Source: Spirogloea muscicola
Lineage: Eukaryota > Streptophyta > Zygnematophyceae > Spirogloeales > Spirogloeaceae
Reading direction: 5' to 3'
DNA: 44,932 nt
NCBI GenBank assembly: GCA_009602725.1
Contig: WELB01000083.1
Location: forward strand, 324,586-369,517
Below, in pieces: positions 1 through 43,931 of the stretch (positions are counted from its first letter, which is position 1; every line of letters begins with the position of its first letter). The position numbers and the translations under genes are program-made. Below the pieces are notes generated by a model, which worked only from the letters and a program-made list of their open reading frames with translations, had not been told where the DNA came from and made no database searches.

Positions 1-490
<490 letters not shown>

Positions 491-12479: not shown

Positions 12480-12990
12480 GTCCTCACGGCTCATCAGAGA
12501 GAAGTGGCTCTTCCAACGGGGGCAAGGGCTGTGAGAAGCCAGCCCGAAAAGAATTGACAAAGGTTCGAAGTGGCCAAAATGACGGAGGGGCCTGAAGCCA
12601 CAATGACGGAGGGGCCTGAAGATGCTATGTAAGAACGGGAGGAGGATGGACCACTCAGTAGCTACGAGTGAGGAGCCTCAAATCCGACAGACTAGCTGCC
12701 GGAAAACTATCACCCTGACGAAAGTCAGAGGCTGCAGCGAGAGCACGGCCAGCACGCAGATGCAAGGCGTGGGCCATGGACCGCTGAAGGGAGACTGACA
12801 ATCGCATGCGATATACCTGGGCCCACGAGCCAGCGGCGTTGAAGTCAGCCTGCTCACCTCGCCCGCGGGACACAGCGCGCCGCGCAAACCTGGCCAGCAG
12901 GTCGAGCCACTGGGATTCGAGAGCCCCGTGCACGTCCACGGCCAGGGGTACGAGCTCGTCTCCAGCCGGGTGGACAAGCCGGCTCATCGA
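12480..12990 (-). mobile_element. Non-LTR-like retroelement, C-terminal ORF fragment
   Basis: The minus strand holds one of the two best-preserved coding copies, about 110 codons (12987-12655). It starts in MSRLVHPAGDELVPLAVDVH, continues through QRSMAHALHLRAGRALA and ends SLSDLRLLTRSY-stop. The order of a short PLAVDVHGAL-like motif and then SLQRSxAHA followed by a stop resembles the tail of reverse-transcriptase ORFs in non-LTR elements; that family call is inference. The 3' UTR to about 12480 holds the hairpin near 12529-12547 and a doubled ATGACGGAGGGGCCTGAAG. Confidence 0.55.
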
Positions 12991-13164
12991 GGCAAATCAC
13001 ACCTTCGACGTGCTTTCATGAGCTCTCTCGGTCTATGATTGAGGGGCTTTGTGTGGTCTGGGTGGCAGGATGGCACTGCTCATCGGTATCAGTAGTTGCC
13101 ATGGACGGCATTATGCCTGCACGCCATGCCCAGACTGGCACGGCTAGGTAATGAAAGCAAGCAA

Positions 13165-16339: not shown

Positions 16340-16870
16340 TTGTGCAATGACACTGCTCGTTCAGGGTTCACCCGGTGGGGGATGAATTCGCGGCCCTGGC
16401 GATGGATGTACACGGGGCTTTCGGCAGCCGCTGGCTGGATCTCATTCAGCGGCTTGCCTGCCAGGCCATTGACCGGCGGCCGGGTCTGCCAGGGGCGATG
16501 CCCGGCTTCAACGCCGCCGGTTCGCTCGCACAAGTCTTCCGCATGCGCCTGGCCGTATCGCTTCAACGCTCCCTTGCCCACGCCGTCCACACGCGCGCAG
16601 GCCGTGCTATGGCCGCCGGCTCTGGGTCTCGGCGGAGTGCCTCTTTCCCTGCAGCGAGCTACTCAGACCTGATGTTGCGCACTCGTGGGTACTGAGCTTC
16701 CCTCTGCATCGTTTCTGTGTTCTGCAGTGTTTTGTAGTGTAGTCCTTTCTCCGGCTCCTCTTTCTTTGGCTTCGGACATTGTCCATTCTTTTTTGGGCTG
16801 GCTTTGCCAGCCCCTCTTCTCTATGGGCGCGCACTTCTGTCTCCTGGTATGACATCGTTGTAATGCCTGG
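16340..16870 (+). mobile_element. Non-LTR-like retroelement, best plus-strand copy
   Basis: An open frame at 16375-16695 (106 codons) starts GDEFAALAMDVHGAFGSRWL, contains MRLAVSLQRSLAHAVHTRAG and ends AASYSDLMLRTRGY-stop. It aligns along its length with the minus-strand copy at 12987-12655. After the stop come GAGCTTCCCTCTGCATCGT, GTTTTGTAGTGTAGTCCTTT and a hairpin at about 16796-16815. The domain between the two blocks is divergent. Family assignment to non-LTR elements is inference from the C-terminal pattern. Confidence 0.55.
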
Positions 16871-17703: not shown

Positions 17704-18244
17704 NNNNNNNNNNNNNNNNNNNNNNNNNNNNNNNNNNNNNNNNNNNNNNNNNNNNNNNNNNNNNNNNNNNNNNNNNNNNNNNNNNNNNNNNNNNNNNNNN
17801 NNNNNNNNNNNNNNNNNNNNNNNNNNNNNNNNNNNNNNNNNNNNNNNNNNNNNNNNNNNNNNNNNNNNNNNNNNNNNNNNNNNNNNNNNNNNNNNNNNNN
17901 NNNNNNNNNNNNNNNNNNNNNNNNNNNNNNNNNNNNNNNNNNNNNNNNNNNNNNNNNNNNNNNNNNNNNNNNNNNNNNNNNNNNNNNNNNNNNNNNNNNN
18001 NNNNNNNNNNNNNNNNNNNNNNNNNNNNNNNNNNNNNNNNNNNNNNNNNNNNNNNNNNNNNNNNNNNNNNNNNNNNNNNNNNNNNNNNNNNNNNNNNNNN
18101 NNNNNNNNNNNNNNNNNNNNNNNNNNNNNNNNNNNNNNNNNNNNNNNNNNNNNNNNNNNNNNNNNNNNNNNNNNNNNNNNNNNNNNNNNNNNNNNNNNNN
18201 NNNNNNNNNNNNNNNNNNNNNNNNNNNNNNNNNNNNNNNNNNNN
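17704..18244. other. Assembly gap (541 N)
   Basis: The gap interrupts a GC-rich region and removes the 5' coding end of the FAS1 receptor kinase gene: signal peptide, start codon and perhaps a first FAS1 domain. Any open frame crossing it is meaningless. Confidence 0.99.
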
Positions 18245-21200
18245 GGCGCCGGCGGCGGGGGCCGGCGCGGCGTTCGAGGCGCTGGCGGCGGCGCTGGCGG
18301 CGCGCGGTAACTACAGCACGACGCTGGCGCTGGTGAAGGCGACGGGGCTGAGCGAGACGCTGGCAGCGCTGCGACGGCCCGTGACGATGCTGGCGCCCAC
18401 TGACGAGGCCTTCGCCCACATCTCGCCCGACGTCTCGTACTCCATCTCGCTCCACAACCAGTTCGTCCCCGTGTTCCTGTACCACGTCCTCGACGGCCGC
18501 CACACCGCCGCCGGCCTCGCCGCCGCCGCCGCCGCCGCCGGCGCCAACGGGACCCACATCGCCACGCTCGCGCCCAACAACCTGCCCATGACCGTGGCGC
18601 CGGGAGATCACGGCGGCGTGGTGTTCCAGCCGGGGCCCGGCCAGGCCAGGCTCGTGGACGCCGACGCATTTGGGGACGTCCTCTTCTTGGTGCAGGGCAT
18701 CGACCGGCTGCTCGTCAGCCCCGCCATTGTTCCGCCCGACTCCATCGTCCCCGCCAGCTCGCCCCTCCCGGCGCCGCAGCCCCCGAGCCCCCCCCCAGGT
18801 CCGGCCGCACCGCCGACATGGGCTCTCGTTACTCGCCATTCTGTGCCCAATTCCGCAACTGGGTTGTTGCTGGAACTCCGGATGGAGCTGTGTAGCTCTG
18901 TACATAAGGAAAGAGCTCCAGCAATGTGGGTGTTCCTGGTAGTCATCTGAGATGCCCAAGCCTGCTCGTAGATCTGCCGCCGGAGCCAGGCCGCGATGCC
19001 ATACTTTCTGCAGACGATGGCTGCCGGTCTCTGCAAGGCCGCCTTGCTGCGAGATTTGGCAGCGGCCAGTGGGGAGCCGCACTGCACCAATGGAGCCGAT
19101 GCTGAAGGCGGCCTATCTCGCTGGTTCTCTGCAGTCACGCCCACTGATGGGAAAAGGAAGCACTCCAGCGACGCGGGGGCCATTGCTGGCGTTCTTGGCG
19201 GCGCTGCCGTACTGCTCGCCGTGGCCATCGTCCTGTATGTGTGCTGCATGCGGCGACGCGCGACGAAGCCCTTGGTGAGCACGATCGACGCGTCCAAGAT
19301 ATTCACGGATGTCAGCATGACCCAAAAGGCGTACGCAGCCGAGGATGGCCACACGATGGTCTCTCTGTCGCAGACCTTCGGTGAGCTCTTCAAATCTCTT
19401 CAATCACTTCTGTGATTGATTGCCTGGTCATGACCTGCAATTATGTATCGGCATTTTTTGCTCCGAGCACCCACGCAGGGTCCTATTAGCACACTGAAAA
19501 TCATACGACTGCAGGCTCTGGTGCAGGAAGACGAGCTTAATGTCACGGTCTTAGCATCTGATTTTTGGAAGAAGATGAAACAGAGTCTTCATTCAGGAGT
19601 CACGGCAATCGCACTTGGTCACCCTATTGAAAGAATGTGAGCTGAGCTCTGTGTACTGCCGAACTTACAATGACCACAGATGCAAGTAACTCTGAGCCCT
19701 CTGAGGAGGTGGCTTGTAGCTCCTCTGAGCGGTGCATCGCGTGTCGCAGGCATCGACACTGCTGGCGTTGAGTACCCTTTCCAGGCGCTCGTGGCGGCAA
19801 CCAGAAACTTTGCTGACGACATGGTGGTGGGCGTCGGTGGTTTTGGGAAAGTGTACAAGGTATGCATGTGTGTCAGATTTGCCTCTAGTGTGTGCTGAAG
19901 ATGACCAACTTTTACACCAGCTGCCCAGGACATAAATTACAGACTTGCGCTCTACACAGGTTGCTCTATATGTCGCCTCAGGCCCGCAAGTTGCAAGTGT
20001 CCAGGCTAAACCTCTTGCCTCCCCCGTATCTGCTTTGCTATGTAGGGAATTATGGAGGATGGAACTGCAGTGGCGGTGAAGAGGTTCAGCCCTGACTCTC
20101 ACCAGGGTATCTCGGAGTTCCTCGCGGAGATGAAGTTCCTCACCAAAGTGAAGCACCCGCACCTCGTGTCCTTGATTGGCTTCTGCAAGGAGGGTGCCGA
20201 AATGCTGCTCATCTACGAGTACATGTCAAACGGCGTGCTCCGATCTCATCTCTATGGTCAGGGCACCAATCTCAAAACCACATTGCCTGCACAAACGGAT
20301 ATATCCTCTAGCTCTGCCTCTGCAGGTCAAAGGTCAGGGGCTAGGTGTCTGCTACATGAGGTTCAGAGATAGATTGCACAAGCAGCATGCATGTAGAACT
20401 ACAGCATTGTGCAAAGCTGTTCTTGCAACCAGCTTCTACACATTCTCAAGCGTACAGCAGGATTTTACTTACTGCTCAAACTTTTCCTGATGACTACGCA
20501 GGCACGGATGCTGAGCTGCATGGTGCCATGCCCTGGAAGCAGCGGCTGGAGATCTGCATTGGCGCCGCCGAGGGCCTGGCTTTCCTGCACACAGGCGCCG
20601 CTCAGAGTATTATCCATCGAGACGTCAAGGTCAGCACATGCTGTTACTTCTCTTCATGTGCTTCGAGCACCTATAGCCATACTGCAGGTCAGCTGGCTTC
20701 GTCATCAGTGCGTAAGGCAGAGTTAAGGCTGGTCCTATTCAAGCCATGGCAATAACTGAAGAGCACGAGTAACTTGGCCAGCAGTCTCCACTGAGTGCCT
20801 GAAAGTTGCAATCTGCTGCTTGAGAGCAGAGCACAAACATCCTCCTGGACGAGCATTTTGATGCAAAGGTTTCTGACTTTGGCCTCTCTCGGATGGGGCC
20901 TGGCCATGACGAATCTCATGTGAGAGCACAGCCCCTTCCTCAACCCTTGGGACCAAATTTCGACCTTGAGACTCAAGTCCATGACCTCTTGGACTCTACA
21001 TTGGATCATGTTGGTCAACATCCAAAAAGTCCAGCTGACCTGGTCAAGCGGCAGCCCGACGCAGTCGACAAAGTGTCCCAAATGTAACATGACTTCGAGC
21101 TTGCAGGTGAGCACGGTAGTGAAAGGAAGCGTTGGGTACATGGACCCTGAGTACTTCCGCAGGTATGAAGCACATAAGCGAAATTTGTGAACATTGTGCA

Positions 21201-22429
21201 ATGGTGAATGATGTAGCTGATGCAGACTTCAGCTTTGGTTATGCTTCAAAGCTGTCAAGCTTCCTGAACCAGCGGAGCTGGTTCAGCCCACTGCTAGTGA
21301 AGTGATTGCAGTTGGTACGCTTTACGCCAAAAGGATGCCATGGATGTCTTACATCGACGGTGTCTCTTAAGACAAGTCTTTGGACTGTGGTCCAAGTCTC
21401 AAGGAGGCGAGATGGACACACAGCTCCTTCACAGCACAGAGCCAGTTGCTGCCAAGTGCTTGGTATAGCAATGCTAGGATTGCTTCTCACCTTCACCCCT
21501 GCTCTTTGGTTGCAGATTGCAGCTAACGGAGCTATCAGATGTGTACAGCTTTGGCGTCGTCGTTCTCGAGGTCCTGTGCGCCCGGCCACCCTTCAATACC
21601 AACACACAAGGAGCCCAGGTCATCCTCGTGGAGTGGGTAAGCGATACTGGGCACCTGCCGTATCATGCTCGAAGTTCACTAGGAGGAGAGGACCTCGCAT
21701 TGCCTGCCGTGGTCAGATTAGCCGCCATGCTTTGTTTGTTGACATCCAGGCTGCGGTTGCAATGCCAGGCAGGCAAGCTCATCAAGCAGGGGATGGTGGA
21801 CCAGATCCTTGATCCCAAGATGGCTGGAACGTACAACGCCGCCTCCATACAACTTGTTGCTGACCTTGCGTCCAAGTGCATCTCGAGCAAGAGCGCCAAG
21901 CGACCCGCCATGAGCGAGGTGCTCCGGACCTTGAAGACCGCCCTTACCCTCCAGGTACATCCGCTCGGGGACCAGTCCATTGTCAATGCTGGCTTTTCCC
22001 AAGCACTATGCCGTTGCAACCAGGATGGCCAGAGGTTGCTGATGCAGGTTGCTGGAGGCTGTCATGGTTTGATGATGTGCACAACGGAGTCATGTCAAAA
22101 AAAAAGAAGAAGAAGATTTGCGATTGTGTGTCAGACTTCTGAGTCTGGAAGGAAGTGCTTGGGATGACAAGATGCAGTCTTTTCCGATTCATTGGCAGGA
22201 GGAGAGCGAACCCAATGATGCAGAGGTGACTATTCCAGGCATTCAACGGAGCTGGGTGTCAGAAGATGAGAAGAGGGGCTCACCAGAAAAGAGCAAGATG
22301 CATGCTGCCGGCAGCAGCTCAGCTTCACAAGTCGAGAATGGCCAGTCAAAGGACAGCAGCCAAGTCTCTCTGAGAGATTTACTGTCTTACTTGGACAATG
22401 ACCCTAGTGTGTTCACTCCGTTGAGATGA
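18245..22429 (+). CDS. FAS1-domain receptor-like kinase, CrRLK1L-type kinase (5' partial)
   Basis: Ten exons join in phase: 18245-18798, 19135-19380, 19750-19859, 20046-20256, 20502-20629, 20830-20919, 21107-21162, 21516-21636, 21769-21954 and 22199-22429, giving 643 visible residues. Residues about 8-160 are a fasciclin (FAS1) domain, with [10 protein letters not shown] as the H1 box, LYHVLDGRH, and [13 protein letters not shown] as the H2 box. Possible N-glycosylation sites are NYS and NGT. A Pro/Ser linker follows, then one membrane span (about 197-221, [20 protein letters not shown]) with a CCMRRR stop-transfer. The kinase has the P-loop [10 protein letters not shown] (294-303), VAVK lysine 315, HRDVK (aspartate 414), DFG (aspartate 432) and GYMDPEYF, so it should be an active RD kinase of the FERONIA/CrRLK1L group. 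A hydrophilic tail ends FTPLR. FAS1 domains are known in secreted wall and arabinogalactan proteins. A wall-adhesion or wall-sensing receptor at the plasma membrane is inferred. The first intron has a weak GTCCGG donor, but it is the one that keeps frame and links FAS1 to the membrane span. Confidence 0.85.
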
Positions 22430-35852: not shown

Positions 35853-36310
35853 GCAAGCGCGGCCAGATCAACTGGTGGCTGGGAGAGGCCAGCCCAAAGG
35901 AATGGACAAGGTCTGAAGGAGCCGGGTGCTAAGGACTGAGACAGCAGCAAGCGGACTCTCAATTACCTCTAGTCAGTAGATGCAAATCTGAATAGCTAGC
36001 AGGAGGAAAGACGTCGCCCTGACGGAAGCCGGAGGCCGCCGCCAGAGCGCGGCCTGCGCGCAAGTGGACCGCGAAAGCTAGGGACCGCTGCAAAGAGACG
36101 GCCAAACGATTCCGGTAGACTTGGGCGAGGGACCCGGCGACCCGGAAGCCAGGCTGCTCGCCCTGCTGCCCGTGGCGGCGGGCCGCTGCTCGTCACGCAA
36201 GGCGGTGAAGAGAAGTGCGCGCCCATGAACCAGGTCAAGCCATTTGGCGCCAAAGGCGCCGTGTACGTCGACGGCGAGTGGGACAAACTCGTCGCCCACC
36301 GGGTGATCCG
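35853..36310 (-). mobile_element. Retroelement copy, twin of 13165-13440
   Basis: The 3' UTR with hairpin, then a minus-strand C-terminus ending ASYSDLHLLTRGN-stop, then the upstream GDEFVPLAVDVHGAFGAKWL frame (36299 leftwards). It reaches further 5' than its twin. The middle is frameshifted. Confidence 0.6.
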
Positions 36311-36589
36311 AGTACTTGCGATCCTTGGCGCCTGCCGCTTGGCGGACTGCGTAGCCCGCCTCCTCCGCCGAGCGTTTGGCGCTCCTGGAATTGAACGAGT
36401 CAGTTGTGACGACGTCAGCAATGAGCCGAGGCCCCCCGCGCTAGCGACGAGATCAGCGCGCCGGGTGTGGAGACGGCATTCCGCACCAGCGGTCGGAGGC
36501 ATGATGCTGGTACTCTCGAGAAAGGCAGTGTCCGGTGGCCCCCCCGCGAGGGCTGAGGATATCGGTCGGAGTAAGTGGCCACTCTCTTG

Positions 36590-37514: not shown

Positions 37515-40500
37515 ATGCGGCGCTCCTGGTGGCTCCGGAGATCGCAAGCGGGCTTCGGCTTCTGGCTGCTGCTGCTGGTGGCCGAGACTGCGACCTCCAG
37601 CGCGCAGACAGGTGCGAAACCGCTGCTCTCGCCGGTGTTGCAGCTGCAGTACACGCATTGGCCGCGTAGACTGCAGCTGTCGGGAGCCAAGGTAACGCCA
37701 CTTACGGCGGCACACAGGGCGCGCTGCGACGCACAGATTAGAAAGTCGCCGCCATACTTTGGCCTGCTTCTGGCAGAATAGTGGCACAGCCGAGGCTGGG
37801 CCAATGTGTTCGGTTTGGCAATTCATTGGCTCATACATCAGATGTATTACCTGCTTCTCGCTGATATTGATTAAGTCGTCTCTCAGATGTCGGAGATCAG
37901 CTTGAACCTCCTCAAATTGCATGCTCTTGACATTCAAATAGTGATGCATGGCTATTGCTGTGACCTTGCGATGTATGATAAGCCAGACAATGTGCTCATC
38001 AATTGTGGAGGAGCTCCTTTTCAAGACGTGCCTCCATATTCTCGGGCTTGGTTAGGCGACGACAGCATCTCAGCCACGGACAATCTGACAATAAAAGCTG
38101 AAGGTCAACTGAGCACAACATTGCCCATCCTCAATGTGGCTTATGCGGGGGCCCCACTCTATCAGGATGCCAGATATAGCAGGTTCCCAGCAAGTCTTGC
38201 AGTGAGTATCAGGTCCCTGTTGTGCACTGCTTTCAAATCGTAGGACTACTGTGGCTGATTCAAGCTCCTCGTTAGTCCCATCATTCAGTACTAGTACTTG
38301 GCCTTGTCTACTTTCACATAGCCATTGTGCACATCATATAGCTTCCTGTATATGCCTGATCGTTGTGGTGAGTATACTTAAACTTTACGGACATGCTTCA
38401 TCACTGTTAGTTGGCGGCATGGAGACGTTCTATCTGTTGCTGGTTCGTAATACTGACATGCTACGGCGTTCGACTGCAGTACACAATCAATGTCAAGAGC
38501 AGTGGAGCGCACTTCGTGCGATTGCACTTTGCAACATTGGCTCCGGCCCAATTCCAGCTCAATCTACTGGGTCTGGACCCCATATTTAACGTGACTGCAA
38601 GTGGCGCAGTACAAACAGTGGTGCTGCTTGCTAACTACAACGTGACGCAAGAAGCTGCAAACCAGGTGCATGATCAGTCAAGCATGGGAGGCTCGTCCAT
38701 AAGTGTCATATCATGATCACTCTGCGCGAGAGAAAGAGAATAGCTGTTGCTGCCTCAACTGGTACATGATATTGTCCTAGCTCACTGCAGTGCTACCAAT
38801 ACTGAGGTACAACCTCCAGCAGCAAGAGCGTCTGTAGTAAACAGAATTATTTGTAAAGTTGAATGCTGGCAGGTCAATGTTGGAGGGCCTTCACCTTTGC
38901 TGAATCCCCTTCTCATTATCTCATCTTGCAGTTCCCTGGCAGTGGACTTTACACAGCAGTGGTGGAGGAGTTTCTCCTTCCAACCTTTGATAAGCCAGGG
39001 CAGCCCTTGATCATCACGTTCAATCCCTATCCAGACACGTTTGCCATCATAAGTGCCATCGAAGTTGTCTCAGCACAAGATGATCTCTACGACGTGAATC
39101 CACGAGCTGTGACTACTTCGGGTGTCTCAGAAAATCGAACAGATGCGGTCCATGGGAAGGTCAGCTGCAACGGGCACAGTAGATGCTTCCCTATCACATG
39201 GAGATACTTGAAGTTTGCCTTGCAAGATCTTGCGTATGATTGCCAAGCGGAGTGTAAACTTGTTGGCCATTTGCCTTAAGCGACTGGCAGGCATTTTGAG
39301 AAGACATTTGCCTCGTCAGAGAAACACTTGTGATGCATTGGTGCACTAACTGTAATATGTTATTTTTATGTGCAGAATCTTAGGATGGTATACCGCTTCA
39401 ATTGTGGGGGCCCGATTGTATATGCCTTGACAGATCCATTCTCCCGGACTTGGCTGGACACTGATGGTAATTACACAATGACCTCTAGCCAGCATCATCA
39501 TTTGGATGCAACAAGGCCTGGAGGAGGTCCACTAGTGAACAACGTCAATGCAACTGCCCTTTACTATATTCCTACGTAAGTTATCTGGTACAATGCATTT
39601 GGTATAATGAAAGCTTCATTTCACAAGCTGATCAATAGTCCAGGCATGCAGCATACTGTCAATCTTGCACATTTGCAAGCAAGGCTGGACTGATGTGTCT
39701 GAATTGTTTGCATCTGTATGCAGACTTGTAACACAAGATACTCGTGAGCTGCGAGTATCATCAGTGACAAACTTGACTTATGCCTTCCCCGTACAGGCTG
39801 GGGGCACATACATAATCCGGCTAATTTTCTCTCAGTACGAAGACAATGAATTTGACCTAAGCATCAATGATGTGGTTGTAGACACCGTAAGCAGGCCTGA
39901 CTCAATGTCTGTGCATATTATGAGCTCTCCTCTCTCAGACTCAGTACTTATGGGAATGACATTGTGGCTTAAAGTCTGTAGTTTAGTTCATGAGAGTGTG
40001 ATGTGAAGCAGAGGTGATCACGTGTATGTTAGAGACTCTTGCTGGAATGAGCACATTCTGCAAGGAACTATCTTCTGAAGTCTTTGTGCAGCATTGCAGT
40101 ATGTCTGACATAGCAATGGGTATGTTTGTTGTAGGTTACAAATCAGTATGTGTACAAAGTAGATGCAGAACGTCAAATAATCAAAACGCCCATATATGGT
40201 GTCCAAGTGAGAGACTTCGTGGTGAGCCTCTTGCCTGCCCAAGCGACGCTCAACATCAGCCTCATTGTTGGTGCCAAGAGCAAGGTGAGCTGTTTTCAGA
40301 CCATCTCAACAGCCAACACTTGTTCTATCATTCCAGAGGTATGTGCTGGCAAGGATGATGATCTTTGGAACACGCACAAGCACTTGTGCCCTTTTTGACG
40401 ATTAACTTACGTGGACCCACTCACACATACTTCAGGTGATGGATGTGGAAATAGCTGGCCTGGAGATTTTAAAGATGGGAACAAGAGACCTGAGTGGGAT

Positions 40501-43500
40501 AGACCGTTTTCACCAGAGCCTGGGTAAGTCTTACCTGAAGAAGCGGCAAGTGTTTTGTAGGTTATGTTTCTAAGCTCAATAGCTTGAGCTTTTTGGAGGT
40601 CCATTAGATGCACAAGCAGCTCTGAGAAGGTCTGCTTCTGCAGATTCTTCTGTAGATGTAGGATCTGCCTCCTACTTGTGGTCTTTTGTTGCTGACAATC
40701 GTCTAATGACCTGCTCGTGGGGCAAAAGCAGGCTCTTCTGTCTCACCACCGTTGTCTCCACCTACTCCGCATAGTCCTCCCATACAGCCTCCAGGTAAGA
40801 CTACCTCCCTCTCACTCTTGCCGCAGACATCCTTGTCTCTTCCCCAGTCATGGAACCGTATGACCATCTGCAGCCCAGGCACCCTACCGCTTCGTATTTG
40901 TTATACGAGTAAGCATAAAGGACTGGTCAGGCAAATGAATTGCACTGCAAGGGGACATACCCTGCTCAACAGTCAATCAATGTCGAGTTTGTTAGATTCT
41001 CATTTGAGACACCTTGCCTAGCACGGGTCTGTTACTTAGCAAGAGAAGGACAGCCTCAGAGTCCATAAAACAATGAGAGGCCTTAGATCAAGCCACTGCA
41101 TACAAGTGTACCACAATGCTTACAGATTCAATATCTGCTTTATGGCATGACAGGAGCAGCATCTCCAGCAACAAGCCCAGTTGCATCCCCTGCACAAGTC
41201 CCCCCTACATCTGGTAACTACTGAATAGCGGCCCCCTCATGTATTCAAGTTGTACTATAGCCATACAACTTGGAGCCATTACATCACTGTCCATATATAG
41301 TGCTTTGTTGAGGAAGAGCACGTCACAGACAAATTGCAGATTTAGCAATATCAAGGTGAGTCTGAGAGAACTTCATGTGGACGTGGAGGCTCTTCTTCTT
41401 ATCCTGTTTCATTACTGACTGAAAACAGGCAAGAAGAAGAGCAGCTCAAGCATTGCACCAATAGTGGGGGGCGCTGTAGGTGGCATTGCTGCCCTTCTCA
41501 TCCTCGCAAGCATCATATACATTTTCTTGGTGAAGCGGAAAAGAGTTGCCATCAATGGGAACGAGTCTCCAACACCAAGGCCTAAGCAAGCAGGTGGGAC
41601 AATAGGAGGATGCCAACAATGATTTCCTCCAGCCACGGTAGCAGCCTTTAGCACAACTACATAGGCTGGCATGAAAGTTGATCTACTTGCACTGATAGTT
41701 GCTACCTGCAATCAGGTATTCTGAAGAAGGAGCCTTTGGGACGGAGATTCCGCTTGCAGGAACTGAAGAATGCAACAAACAACTTTGCTGACAATCTGCT
41801 GATTGGAGAAGGAGGTTTTGGCAAGGTTTATAAGGTACTGCAAGGTGGAGAGTTAGTAGTATAGCAAGCTGGATATACCTAGATTGTGATGTCATAATAC
41901 TATCACTCTTTGTGCTGTATATTGAACAGTGTACTTGTGTGCCTTTTCCAATCCCCATGTCCTGTTCCAGAAGCATGACCACAGACATATGCTGAGTGCT
42001 ATGCCTTGGCTGAATGATGTAGGGTGTACTACCTGATGGCCCTGAGGTGGCCATTAAGAGGGGTGTACCAAACTGCGTGCAAGGTGTCAAGGAGTTTGAA
42101 ACGGAGATCCTTCTGCTCAGCCAGCTCAGGCATAGGCACCTAGTGTCTCTCATTGGCTACTGTGATGAGCGGCAGGAGATGCTACTTGTCTACGACTTCA
42201 TGCCAAATGGCACACTCAGGAGTCACCTTTACGGTGAGCCTTTTTCGTTACACGCTAGCTTAGCATGCCTCAATCACCTCCAGCCTTGCACAAAGGGTCT
42301 GTGATGCTCAAGAACAGATTTCACAATCTTGTAATGGCGCAGGGAAGGAGTTGGACATCGGAAAGGTGCTCACTTGGAGGCAGCGACTAGAGATTTGCGT
42401 TGGCGCGTGCAGCGGCCTCAACTATCTCCATAACGGGGCTACACACAGTGTCATTCACAGAGATGTCAAGGTAATCAGTTGCATCAGGAACGTGCATTCT
42501 GCACGTCAAGTGTGTTACAGTCAACCACAGTCCTACATTGTCAATTTGCAAATGAGGTGTAGTTGCAGCCAAATTCAAGTGTGTAACAATCTACCTTAAC
42601 TCCACGTCGCCAACCCTGCAAATGAGGTCGAGTTACTGCCTAATCCACAGATAATTTACCAGCATGTCGTCGCGTTCTGTTTAGTTTGTGCACGTGCTGG
42701 GACTTGCTGGTCTTCTAGCCCCTCGTCCATACTGATCACTGGAGTGTTGTGCTTCCACAGAGCACAAATATTCTTCTTGATGAACACTTTGTGGCCAAAG
42801 TCTCAGACTTTGGCCTTTCACGACTAGGCCCTGATTTGGACAAGTCTCATGTAAGAGCCTACATGGTGCTCGTCTTAGGTTGCATTAATGCGCGCAGCAA
42901 CGATCAGTTTGTGCATGGAAAGTCCAGATGAGCAGGTCCTCAGCCTGACAAGTTGTTATACATCCACTTTCACAAAAGATCACGTCATTCAAAATCCAAT
43001 GCACTGTTACAGGTCAGTACCACTGTCAAAGGAAGCATTGGCTACTTGGACCCAGAGTACTTCCGAAAGTAAGTACTGGCTCATGCAAGTACAATCAACC
43101 AAGTCACACTCATATATAGCAGTGCTCAGTTGTGTTGACTGCCCAAATTACTGCCAGCATGATTCAAAAGCCTGACCTGATCAACACCTCTGATATTGCA
43201 GGTTGCAGCTCACAACAAAGTCAGATGTCTACAGCTTTGGGGTGGTGCTCCTAGAAGTCCTGTGCGGAAGGAGCCCCATAGACTCTGAAATCGCTTCCGA
43301 CGAGCTCATACTTGTTGAGTGGGTGAGTGATGCAGAGCTTTCGTATGAGTCGCACGGCATGCCTTCCTCAGGTAGTGGTGACTGTGCTAGCATTCCACAG
43401 GAGGACGAACAAGCTCATGAAGTGTATCTGTCATCTGATGCACAGGCTCTGCACCACTTAGGCGAGGGCACGTTGTACAGAGTAATAGATCCAAATCTGC

Positions 43501-43931
43501 AAGGGCAGTATGAGTGGGCGTCTGTGGAAAAGGTGGGGGAGTTGGCAGGGAAATGTGTTCGCCATGACAGCTCCAAACGACCCGCTATGGGCGATGTCTT
43601 GACCACCCTTGAAATTGCGCTGTCGATGCTGCCGGTGTGTCCTTGGACCTACTCTTTCCCTTTTCACGCCCTGCAGATTGTGGAAATGCCTTACTGCGTT
43701 GAGTTCTGATGCAATTGTTGTGTTTCCCAAGAGTTGACAATCCCTTCAAGCACATGTATCCTGGGGGCTGCTTCATGCTTGCGCAGCTCCACTGGGGTGA
43801 GTCAGTGCAATTGATGTACGAATATTATGTTGTGTTGATTTTTGCAGCCTGATGAGAGTGGTGTGTCTGCCTTGGCTCCCCCTCCCAGCATCCCAAAAGT
43901 ACACTCTCTTGAAGATAGTGACTCCTGGTAG
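37515..43931 (+). CDS. Malectin-like receptor kinase, CrRLK1L/FERONIA type
   Basis: Nineteen exons join in phase to 870 residues: 37515-37611, 37987-38201, 38480-38665, 38932-39159, 39376-39575, 39724-39886, 40135-40284, 40436-40523, 40732-40794, 41154-41213, 41429-41593, 41716-41834, 42023-42233, 42343-42470, 42761-42850, 43013-43068, 43202-43322, 43446-43634 and 43848-43931. A signal peptide (about 1-31, [17 protein letters not shown]) is followed by two malectin-like halves: DNVLINCGG... (33 to about 240) and [20 protein letters not shown]... (about 245-440). Typical motifs include [26 protein letters not shown] and GLEILKM. A Pro/Ser stalk (443-484), a membrane span (about 495-520) and KRKR come next. 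The kinase has [10 protein letters not shown] (569-578), VAIK lysine 590, HRDVK aspartate 689 and DFG aspartate 707, and the tail ends DSW. CrRLK1L receptors sense wall state and RALF peptides and control growth and reproduction. The length is normal for the family and all catalytic motifs are intact. The final exon could alternatively be spliced at its last GTAGGA. Confidence 0.93.

What the first reader, a model, noticed from the sequence alone, without database searches (positions are those of the whole stretch)
18245..22429. Receptor kinase with a fasciclin (FAS1) ectodomain and a CrRLK1L kinase
Seen in sequence: FAS1 boxes ([28 protein letters not shown]), a Pro/Ser linker, one membrane span and a complete RD kinase chain through ten in-phase exons. 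Known: plant FAS1 domains sit in secreted or GPI-anchored arabinogalactan proteins, and CrRLK1L kinases carry malectin-like ectodomains. I know of no established plant receptor class with FAS1 joined to a CrRLK1L kinase. Inference: a wall-adhesion receptor that feeds a FERONIA-like signalling module.
Basis: partly seen in the sequence, partly recalled or inferred. Interest (0 to 1): 0.88.

Follow-up and report, generated by a model that had tools for sequence, protein, structure and literature searches.

The report
Receptor kinase with a fasciclin ectodomain

Summary
Window 18246-22429 (+) encodes 643 residues, cut at the start by a 541-N gap: a Pfam Fasciclin domain (9e-13), a Pro/Ser linker, one membrane span and an RD kinase (6e-47), over ten GT-AG exons. 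FERONIA is the best PDB match. Contigs C164 and C279 of the same 153-Mb genome carry further copies with the same exon borders, except that C279 has lost part of exon 4. None of 19 exon pairs compared has an indel, while intron 1, between FAS1 and the span, has frame-breaking ones. This argues strongly against separate genes and a mis-join. The closest kinases found belong to paralogues with malectin-like sequence, so FAS1 probably replaced a malectin-like ectodomain; clade support is moderate (87/85, 90/86). The organism is probably Spirogloea muscicola (inferred). Ten text searches listed no FAS1-kinase receptor; supplements and many subscription papers were out of reach. The role proposed, wall or adhesion sensing with a FERONIA-like output, is inference. 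Verdict: a real, apparently unreported receptor architecture, a new variant of CrRLK1L receptors.

The parts
17704..18244 (.). Assembly gap of 541 N that hides the gene's 5' end
   Evidence: both homoeologues also break in this exon with a single N, and in C164 the 18 bases before that N equal what I recall as the start of an Illumina adapter (13 places in the genome, 0 for the reversed control)
18246..18798 (+). Exon 1 (partial): FAS1 domain and Pro/Ser-rich linker
   Evidence: Pfam Fasciclin 9e-13; PDB ig-h3 FAS1 3.1e-10; no indel against C164 or C279 over the 418 bases shared
18799..19134 (+). Intron 1, joining the FAS1 exon to the membrane-span exon
   Evidence: GT and AG conserved in three copies; indels of 4 and 1 (against C164) and of 8, 1, 23 and 1 (against C279)
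19135..19380 (+). Exon 2: extracellular juxtamembrane stretch, membrane span (19182-19244), inner juxtamembrane stretch
   Evidence: highest hydropathy of the protein, 2.58 over 21 residues; dN/dS 0.12-0.17
19750..21954 (+). Exons 3-9: CrRLK1L-type RD kinase (19750-19859, 20046-20256, 20502-20629, 20830-20919, 21107-21162, 21516-21636, 21769-21954)
   Evidence: Pfam 6e-47; FERONIA 3.1e-107; motifs located; trees
22199..22429 (+). Exon 10: C-terminal tail and TGA stop
37983..43634 (+). Not part of the gene: neighbouring malectin-like CrRLK1L gene on the same strand (approximate limits; kinase exons 41716-43634), with kinase introns at the same places
   Evidence: Pfam Malectin_like 2.3e-10 and Malectin 2.1e-9 on hand-joined ectodomain pieces; kinase exons; in PDB only ANXUR1 ectodomains at E about 0.009 for part of it

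Best explanation
This is one gene for a single-pass receptor kinase: a signal peptide (hidden in the gap, inferred), one FAS1 domain, a short Pro/Ser-rich stalk, a membrane span, and an RD kinase of the CrRLK1L (FERONIA) type. It most likely arose when a FAS1 exon took the place of the malectin-like ectodomain of a duplicated CrRLK1L gene; this step is inferred from the kinase trees and shared introns. Proposed mechanism, inferred: the FAS1 domain binds a wall, mucilage or neighbouring-surface partner, as secreted fasciclin-like arabinogalactan proteins are thought to do. Strain on, clustering of, or release of that partner changes receptor association, the kinase phosphorylates itself and its substrates, and a FERONIA-like output such as RopGEF activation follows.
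For: One frame over ten GT-AG exons. Fasciclin (49 bits, cut-off 22) and kinase (160.5 bits, cut-off 23.1) are both well above Pfam's cut-offs. FERONIA gives the best PDB match at 362.6 bits, then chain 2qkw_B (Pto, by recall) at 317.6 and SYMRK at 260.7. Copies on three contigs share exon borders; 0 of 19 exon pairs compared has an indel (10 against C164, 9 against C279, its broken exon 4 left out), while introns differ by 4.2-17.7% and 15 of 17 intron pairs compared have indels (intron 6 has none in either pair). Indels in intron 1 shift the frame between copies, so neither a FAS1 frame running on to the stop at 18948 nor a kinase frame starting in intron 1 is conserved. Exons 3-8 of the kinase were found at matching places in 6 of 6 malectin-type loci and in the neighbour. 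The FAS1 kinases group with those six at 87/85 and 90/86. Catalytic motifs are present. RopGEF (PRONE) matches occur at two loci of the genome.
Against: No transcript was seen. The 5' end is missing in all three copies, so the signal peptide is untested. The FAS1 exon is under weaker constraint (dN/dS 0.30-0.84, on few changes) than the kinase (0.10-0.20), and the tail reaches 1.08 in one pair. The C279 copy lacks about 83 bp of exon 4 with its donor: broken, or mis-assembled. The supports that place the FAS1 kinases are below the program's starred level, and a grouping that adds the window neighbour is neither shown nor rejected. The structure prediction failed (mean pLDDT 36.6). No RALF was found, though that search had no positive control. 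Ligand, adhesion and output are untested.
Confidence: 0.72

Rival explanations
1. Two neighbouring genes: a secreted FAS1 protein ending shortly after exon 1, and a kinase starting within intron 1.
For: An open FAS1 frame runs on to a stop at 18948, and an open frame from 18972 leads into exon 2.
Against: Both extensions are crossed by indels of 4, 1, 8, 1, 23 and 1 bases between the three copies, while the flanking exons have none and donor and acceptor are conserved. Exon phases match across the intron.
Confidence: 0.05
2. Assembly mis-join or collapse that brought a FAS1 exon next to a kinase.
For: A 541-N gap touches exon 1; both homoeologues have a single N in the same exon, one of them next to an adapter-like stretch.
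Against: 18245-22429 holds no N. FAS1 and kinase lie together on three separate contigs whose exons differ by 1.8-6.9%. The breaks lie upstream of or inside the FAS1 exon, not between FAS1 and kinase.
Confidence: 0.02
3. A malectin-like CrRLK1L whose malectin exons are hidden in the gap, with FAS1 as an added domain.
For: The six nearest paralogues and the C18/C72 genes show malectin-like sequence by eye; of two ectodomains scanned with Pfam, both are malectin-like.
Against: In C164 about 600 bases lie between the place that matches the window's last base before the gap and a candidate start codon kept in both homoeologues (C164:208132, C279:144439); two blocks of this upstream stretch are only 79-81% alike with 39 and 17 gap positions. 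A gap of nominal 541 bases then leaves little room. Gap sizes and single-N joins are estimates, so this is not excluded.
Confidence: 0.07
4. A decaying gene: a FAS1-kinase chimera on its way to pseudogene status after genome triplication.
For: C279 exon 4 loss; raised dN/dS in the FAS1 exon and tail in some pairs.
Against: Window and C164 copies are intact from exon 2 to the stop, with kinase dN/dS 0.11-0.20 between them and no exon indels. The start of exon 1 cannot be judged.
Confidence: 0.1

Closest known systems
CrRLK1L (malectin-like) receptor kinases: FERONIA, THESEUS1, ANXUR
   Same: Kinase domain closest to FERONIA among solved structures (57.6% identity over 290 residues; best PDB match); one membrane span; intron places shared with malectin-type paralogues of the same genome.
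   Different: Ectodomain is a FAS1 domain with a Pro/Ser stalk; no malectin-like match in the protein.
Fasciclin-like arabinogalactan proteins (FLAs), e.g. FLA4/SOS5
   Same: FAS1 domain followed by a Pro/Ser-rich stretch.
   Different: FLAs are soluble or GPI-anchored (PMC6032426 passage); this chain runs through a membrane span into a kinase. [quoted passage not shown]
FLA4-FEI1/FEI2 pathway
   Same: A FAS1 protein and receptor kinases act in one genetic wall pathway (passages of PMC7912651 and PMC6032426).
   Different: There FAS1 protein and LRR kinases are separate molecules with no experimental proof of direct interaction; here FAS1 and kinase are one chain, and the kinase is of CrRLK1L type.
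Closterium CpRLK1
   Same: Charophycean (Closterium) receptor kinase related to CrRLK1Ls (passages of PMC5002434).
   Different: Said to have a domain composition similar to CrRLK1Ls (PMC7618880 passage), not FAS1. Its sequence was not compared here.

Membership tests
CrRLK1L receptor kinases | Kinase domain of the CrRLK1L clade | tested here: met
   FERONIA is the best PDB match; groups with six malectin-type paralogues at 87/85 and 90/86, below the starred level. FERONIA itself sits on a neighbouring branch with the C18/C72/C146 triad. Land-plant rows were one FERONIA and, Pto.
CrRLK1L receptor kinases | Malectin-like ectodomain | tested here: not met
   No Malectin or Malectin_like match at E <= 0.01 in the 643 residues; the 5' gap leaves a small doubt.
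CrRLK1L receptor kinases | Single membrane span between ectodomain and kinase | tested here: met
   Hydropathy peak at residues 201-221, encoded by 19182-19244; simple hydropathy, no dedicated predictor.
CrRLK1L receptor kinases | Intron places shared with CrRLK1L paralogues of the same genome | tested here: met
   Exons 3-8 found in 6 of 6 malectin-type loci and in the window neighbour; the search imposed the window's phases and GT/AG ends, and exons 4-7 end at the same residues. Exon 9: well in 1 of 6 loci, poorly in 2, not in 3 whose loci end early.
CrRLK1L receptor kinases | RALF/LLG ligand complex | not testable with these tools
   PF05498 found no RALF in the genome, but nothing rang in the controls either; LLG was not searched.
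Fasciclin-like arabinogalactan proteins | FAS1 domain | tested here: met
Fasciclin-like arabinogalactan proteins | GPI anchor or soluble secreted form | tested here: not met
   The chain continues through a membrane span into a kinase.
Fasciclin-like arabinogalactan proteins | Signal peptide | tested here: inconclusive
   Hidden in the gap; a candidate start (reading MARRPSAAAAAA in C164, MAR in C279) stands before the breaks.
Fasciclin-like arabinogalactan proteins | Arabinogalactan-type Pro-rich glycosylation region | tested here: inconclusive
   Linker [22 protein letters not shown] is seen; glycosylation cannot be read from sequence.

The most novel reading that the evidence does not exclude
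A distinct receptor class in which an adhesion-type FAS1 module has replaced the malectin-like domain of a CrRLK1L, so that one molecule couples fasciclin-based adhesion or wall sensing to FERONIA-type signalling, in an alga of the land plants' sister group. It would be a natural fusion that supports direct coupling of FAS1 proteins to wall-integrity kinases, which in the land-plant FLA4-FEI pathway is known only genetically.
Probability: 0.55. Interest if true: 0.75.

Novelty: new variant of a known kind. Interest (0 to 1): 0.62.

Why it matters
A FAS1 protein and wall-integrity kinases act in one genetic pathway in Arabidopsis (FLA4-FEI), but direct interaction has no experimental proof (PMC7912651, passage). 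A gene that fuses the two kinds of module is independent evidence that coupling them is workable, and gives a one-molecule system in which to ask what FAS1 senses. It also suggests that the CrRLK1L kinase could take a different ectodomain. The same genome holds malectin-like CrRLK1L-type genes, which bears on the published view that CrRLK1Ls are land-plant specific (PMC7618880, passage).

Tried and rejected
Separate-gene, mis-join, hidden-malectin and decay readings were tested and are given as rivals. A structure prediction of the ectodomain from three near-identical rows failed (mean pLDDT 36.6), so no fold search was made. NCBIfam gave only a weak match far below its cut-off for the ectodomain. 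A RALF search found nothing but had no positive control. Other plants could not be searched: the whole-genome tool states that this genome has no relatives on hand, so the kinase trees hold one FERONIA and, in one tree, Pto as land-plant rows. The kinase search of the genome scored 133 of 774 candidates, so its list is a lower bound. A test of one clade made of ten rows (three FAS1, six paralogues, the neighbour) was not rejected (p-AU 0.408), which does not show a clade. Pfam scans of seven other window frames gave nothing above cut-off. Five other FAS1 loci hold no kinase match within about 3.2 kb; the remaining FAS1 places (C61, C14, C213) were judged only by distance to the kinase matches. 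A first merge of C279 loci was in the wrong orientation and was redone.
Full report
What was checked. I rebuilt the gene. Ten exons with GT-AG introns splice into one frame of 643 residues with a single terminal stop. The 5' end is cut by a 541-N gap at 17704-18244. Pfam finds Fasciclin at residues 22-156 (9e-13, 49 bits against a cut-off of 22) and PK_Tyr_Ser-Thr at 292-560 (6e-47). Among PDB sequences the protein is closest to FERONIA kinase (3.1e-107, 362.6 bits), then to a chain I take to be Pto (317.6 bits), then to SYMRK (260.7 bits) (1591 distinct sequences matched, the best 60 shown). The FAS1 part alone matches TGFBI/ig-h3 FAS1 domains (3.1e-10). The kinase has a glycine loop, the VAVK lysine, HRD, DFG and DPEYF motifs; that it is active is inference.

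Which organism. The window is C83:324586-369517 of a genome of 153,112,186 bases in 471 contigs. Several kinase and malectin-domain matches come in sets of three contigs. A table in PMC11096116 gives Spirogloea muscicola CCAC 0214 174 Mb, the value 566.4 and 17,449 scaffolds (passage). I read 566.4 as N50 in kb, because the Penium row (116.2; 332,786) agrees with the N50 of 116.1 kb and 332,786 scaffolds named in PMC11341676 (passage). Contig C94 here is 566,364 bases long. With a recalled report of genome triplication, this points to S. muscicola.

One gene or two. Fasciclin matches in the genome at E <= 0.001 number 12. Three of these (C83, C164, C279) lie just upstream of the same kinase. 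The two other copies have the same exon borders and phases, except that exon 4 of C279 is broken. Of 19 exon pairs compared (ten against C164, nine against C279, exon 4 of C279 left out) none has an insertion or deletion, and exons differ by 1.8-6.9%. Introns differ by 4.2-17.7%, and 15 of 17 intron pairs compared have indels. After the exon 1 donor the copies differ by indels of 4 and 1 (C164) and 8, 1, 23 and 1 bases (C279). So a FAS1 frame read on to the stop at 18948, or a kinase frame started within intron 1, would be shifted between copies. That is strong evidence that 18799-19134 is an intron joining FAS1 to the membrane-span exon. As FAS1 and kinase lie together on three contigs, a mis-join is very unlikely.

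The 5' end. In C164 and C279 a single N stands inside exon 1. In C164 the 18 bases before it match what I recall as the start of an Illumina adapter. That 18-mer occurs at 13 places in the genome, and the reversed control at none, so the break is probably an assembly artefact in GC-rich sequence. A candidate start codon stands just before both breaks (C164:208132, reading MARRPSAAAAAA; C279:144439, reading MAR). Two blocks of the stretch upstream are 79-81% alike between the copies, with 39 and 17 gap positions, as expected of non-coding sequence. About 600 bases of C164 lie between the place that matches the window's last base before the gap and this start, so a gap of nominal 541 bases leaves little room for another large domain. 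Gap sizes are estimates; a hidden domain is unlikely but not excluded. The first 34 to 43 residues of the FAS1 exon as seen in the window are missing from both other copies.

Where the kinase belongs. I placed 25 kinase rows in a tree, and 21 rows after leaving out three distant algal rows and Pto. Most rows are tblastn pieces. The three FAS1 kinases form one clade (100/100) and group with six paralogues (C19 twice, C132, C317, C10, C106) at 87/85 and 90/86, below the program's starred level. FERONIA groups with the C18/C72/C146 triad (97/96). Identity of the window kinase is 63-74% to the six paralogues, 62.3% to the window neighbour over the 231 residues modelled, and 57.6% to FERONIA. Kinase exons 3-8 were found at matching places in all six paralogues and in the neighbour, in a search that imposed the window's phases and GT/AG ends. 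By eye the paralogues carry malectin-like sequence. Pfam was run on two hand-joined ectodomains, C19 and the neighbour at about 37.98-43.6 kb; both match Malectin and Malectin_like above cut-off. In the PDB, part of the neighbour's ectodomain matched only ANXUR1 chains, weakly (E about 0.009). The simplest history is a duplicated malectin-like CrRLK1L whose ectodomain was replaced by a FAS1 exon; the moderate support leaves room for other orders of events. Kinase fragments that may be the neighbour's counterparts lie about 23 kb and 30 kb from the FAS1 gene on C164 and C279, on the same strand as it, so the pair probably predates the triplication; this was not checked by sequence.

Other FAS1 genes. 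With the FAS1 part as a query, only the three copies are found in the genome at E <= 0.1. Of the other Pfam FAS1 places, five loci show no kinase match within about 3.2 kb, and the frames of four of them were read.

Constraint. dN/dS is 0.10-0.20 in the kinase and 0.12-0.17 in exon 2, but 0.30-0.84 in the FAS1 exon and linker, where dS is low, and 0.19-1.08 in the tail. The FAS1 frame is kept, but its sequence is less constrained. C279 lacks about 83 bp of exon 4 including the donor: a broken copy, or an assembly error.

How it may work. Shown: domain order and conserved gene structure. Inferred: secretion, plasma-membrane placement with FAS1 outside, binding of a wall or surface partner by FAS1, and kinase output. 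The genome holds RopGEF (PRONE) matches at two loci, so one output known for FERONIA (recalled; RopGEFs are also named as CrRLK1L pathway parts in PMC5002434) may be available. RALF was not found, in a search without a positive control. Background: FLA4 and the FEI kinases act in one wall pathway without proven contact (PMC7912651 passages), and FAS1 domains in plants occur almost exclusively in FLAs (PMC12820192 passage).

Is it in print. Ten text searches were made. Two returned nothing, and two listed only part of what they found (25 of 42 and 25 of 72). No title or abstract start listed describes a FAS1-kinase receptor. In PMC10834447 (177,645 RLKs from 350 genomes) the words fasciclin and FAS1 do not occur in the main text, and fasciclin does not occur in PMC10152718; of both papers I saw passages only. 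PMC11096116 mentions 209 Pfam domain combinations unique to Zygnematophyceae (passage), which might include this one; its supplement could not be read. Gong and Han 2021, Dievart et al. 2020 and Sasaki et al. 2007 were seen only as citations, so prior mention cannot be excluded.

Verdict. A real gene with an apparently unreported receptor architecture, of a known kind (receptor-like kinases with exchanged ectodomains). The adhesion and wall-sensing role is a good hypothesis, untested.

Noticed in passing
window 37983-43634 (+): Neighbouring CrRLK1L-type gene with a malectin-like ectodomain (Pfam Malectin_like 2.3e-10 on hand-joined pieces); related kinase fragments lie near the FAS1 gene on C164 and C279 too.
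   Followed up: partly
L021, L022, L023, L028, L033, L035, L051, L052: Several malectin-like CrRLK1L-type genes in this genome, which bears on the published statement that CrRLK1Ls are believed to be land-plant specific.
   Followed up: partly
L005/L029 (C279), exon 4: About 83 bp including the exon 4 donor are missing from the C279 copy: pseudogene or assembly error.
   Followed up: partly
L007 1482-1499 (C164:208168-208185) and 12 other places in the genome: An 18-mer that I recall as the start of an Illumina adapter, here next to a single-N join; adapter remains may mark artefact joins in this assembly. The other 12 places were not inspected.
   Followed up: partly
window 12658-12996 (-), 16351-16692 (+), 36081-36440 (-): A repeated peptide of the form DE[FL]..LA.DVHGA....WLDL, perhaps remains of a transposable element; of the three frames only the first was scanned with Pfam, without a match.
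   Followed up: no
L003 (C175:35279-38482, minus strand): FAS1 frame without a kinase nearby; the open frame reported there (3241 aa) contains a run of N read as X, so its length means little.
   Followed up: partly
L039-L041 (C14, C16, C38): Full-length Malectin_like domains in a triplicated set; kinase matches of about 43% identity lie 13-16 kb away on the same strand of each contig. Whether they belong to one gene was not examined.
   Followed up: no
L044-L049 (C5, C41, C54): Malectin_like domains split over two stretches in a triplicated set, with kinase matches about 3.5 kb downstream.
   Followed up: no
window 1-123: The window opens with a run of A of about 123 bases.
   Followed up: no
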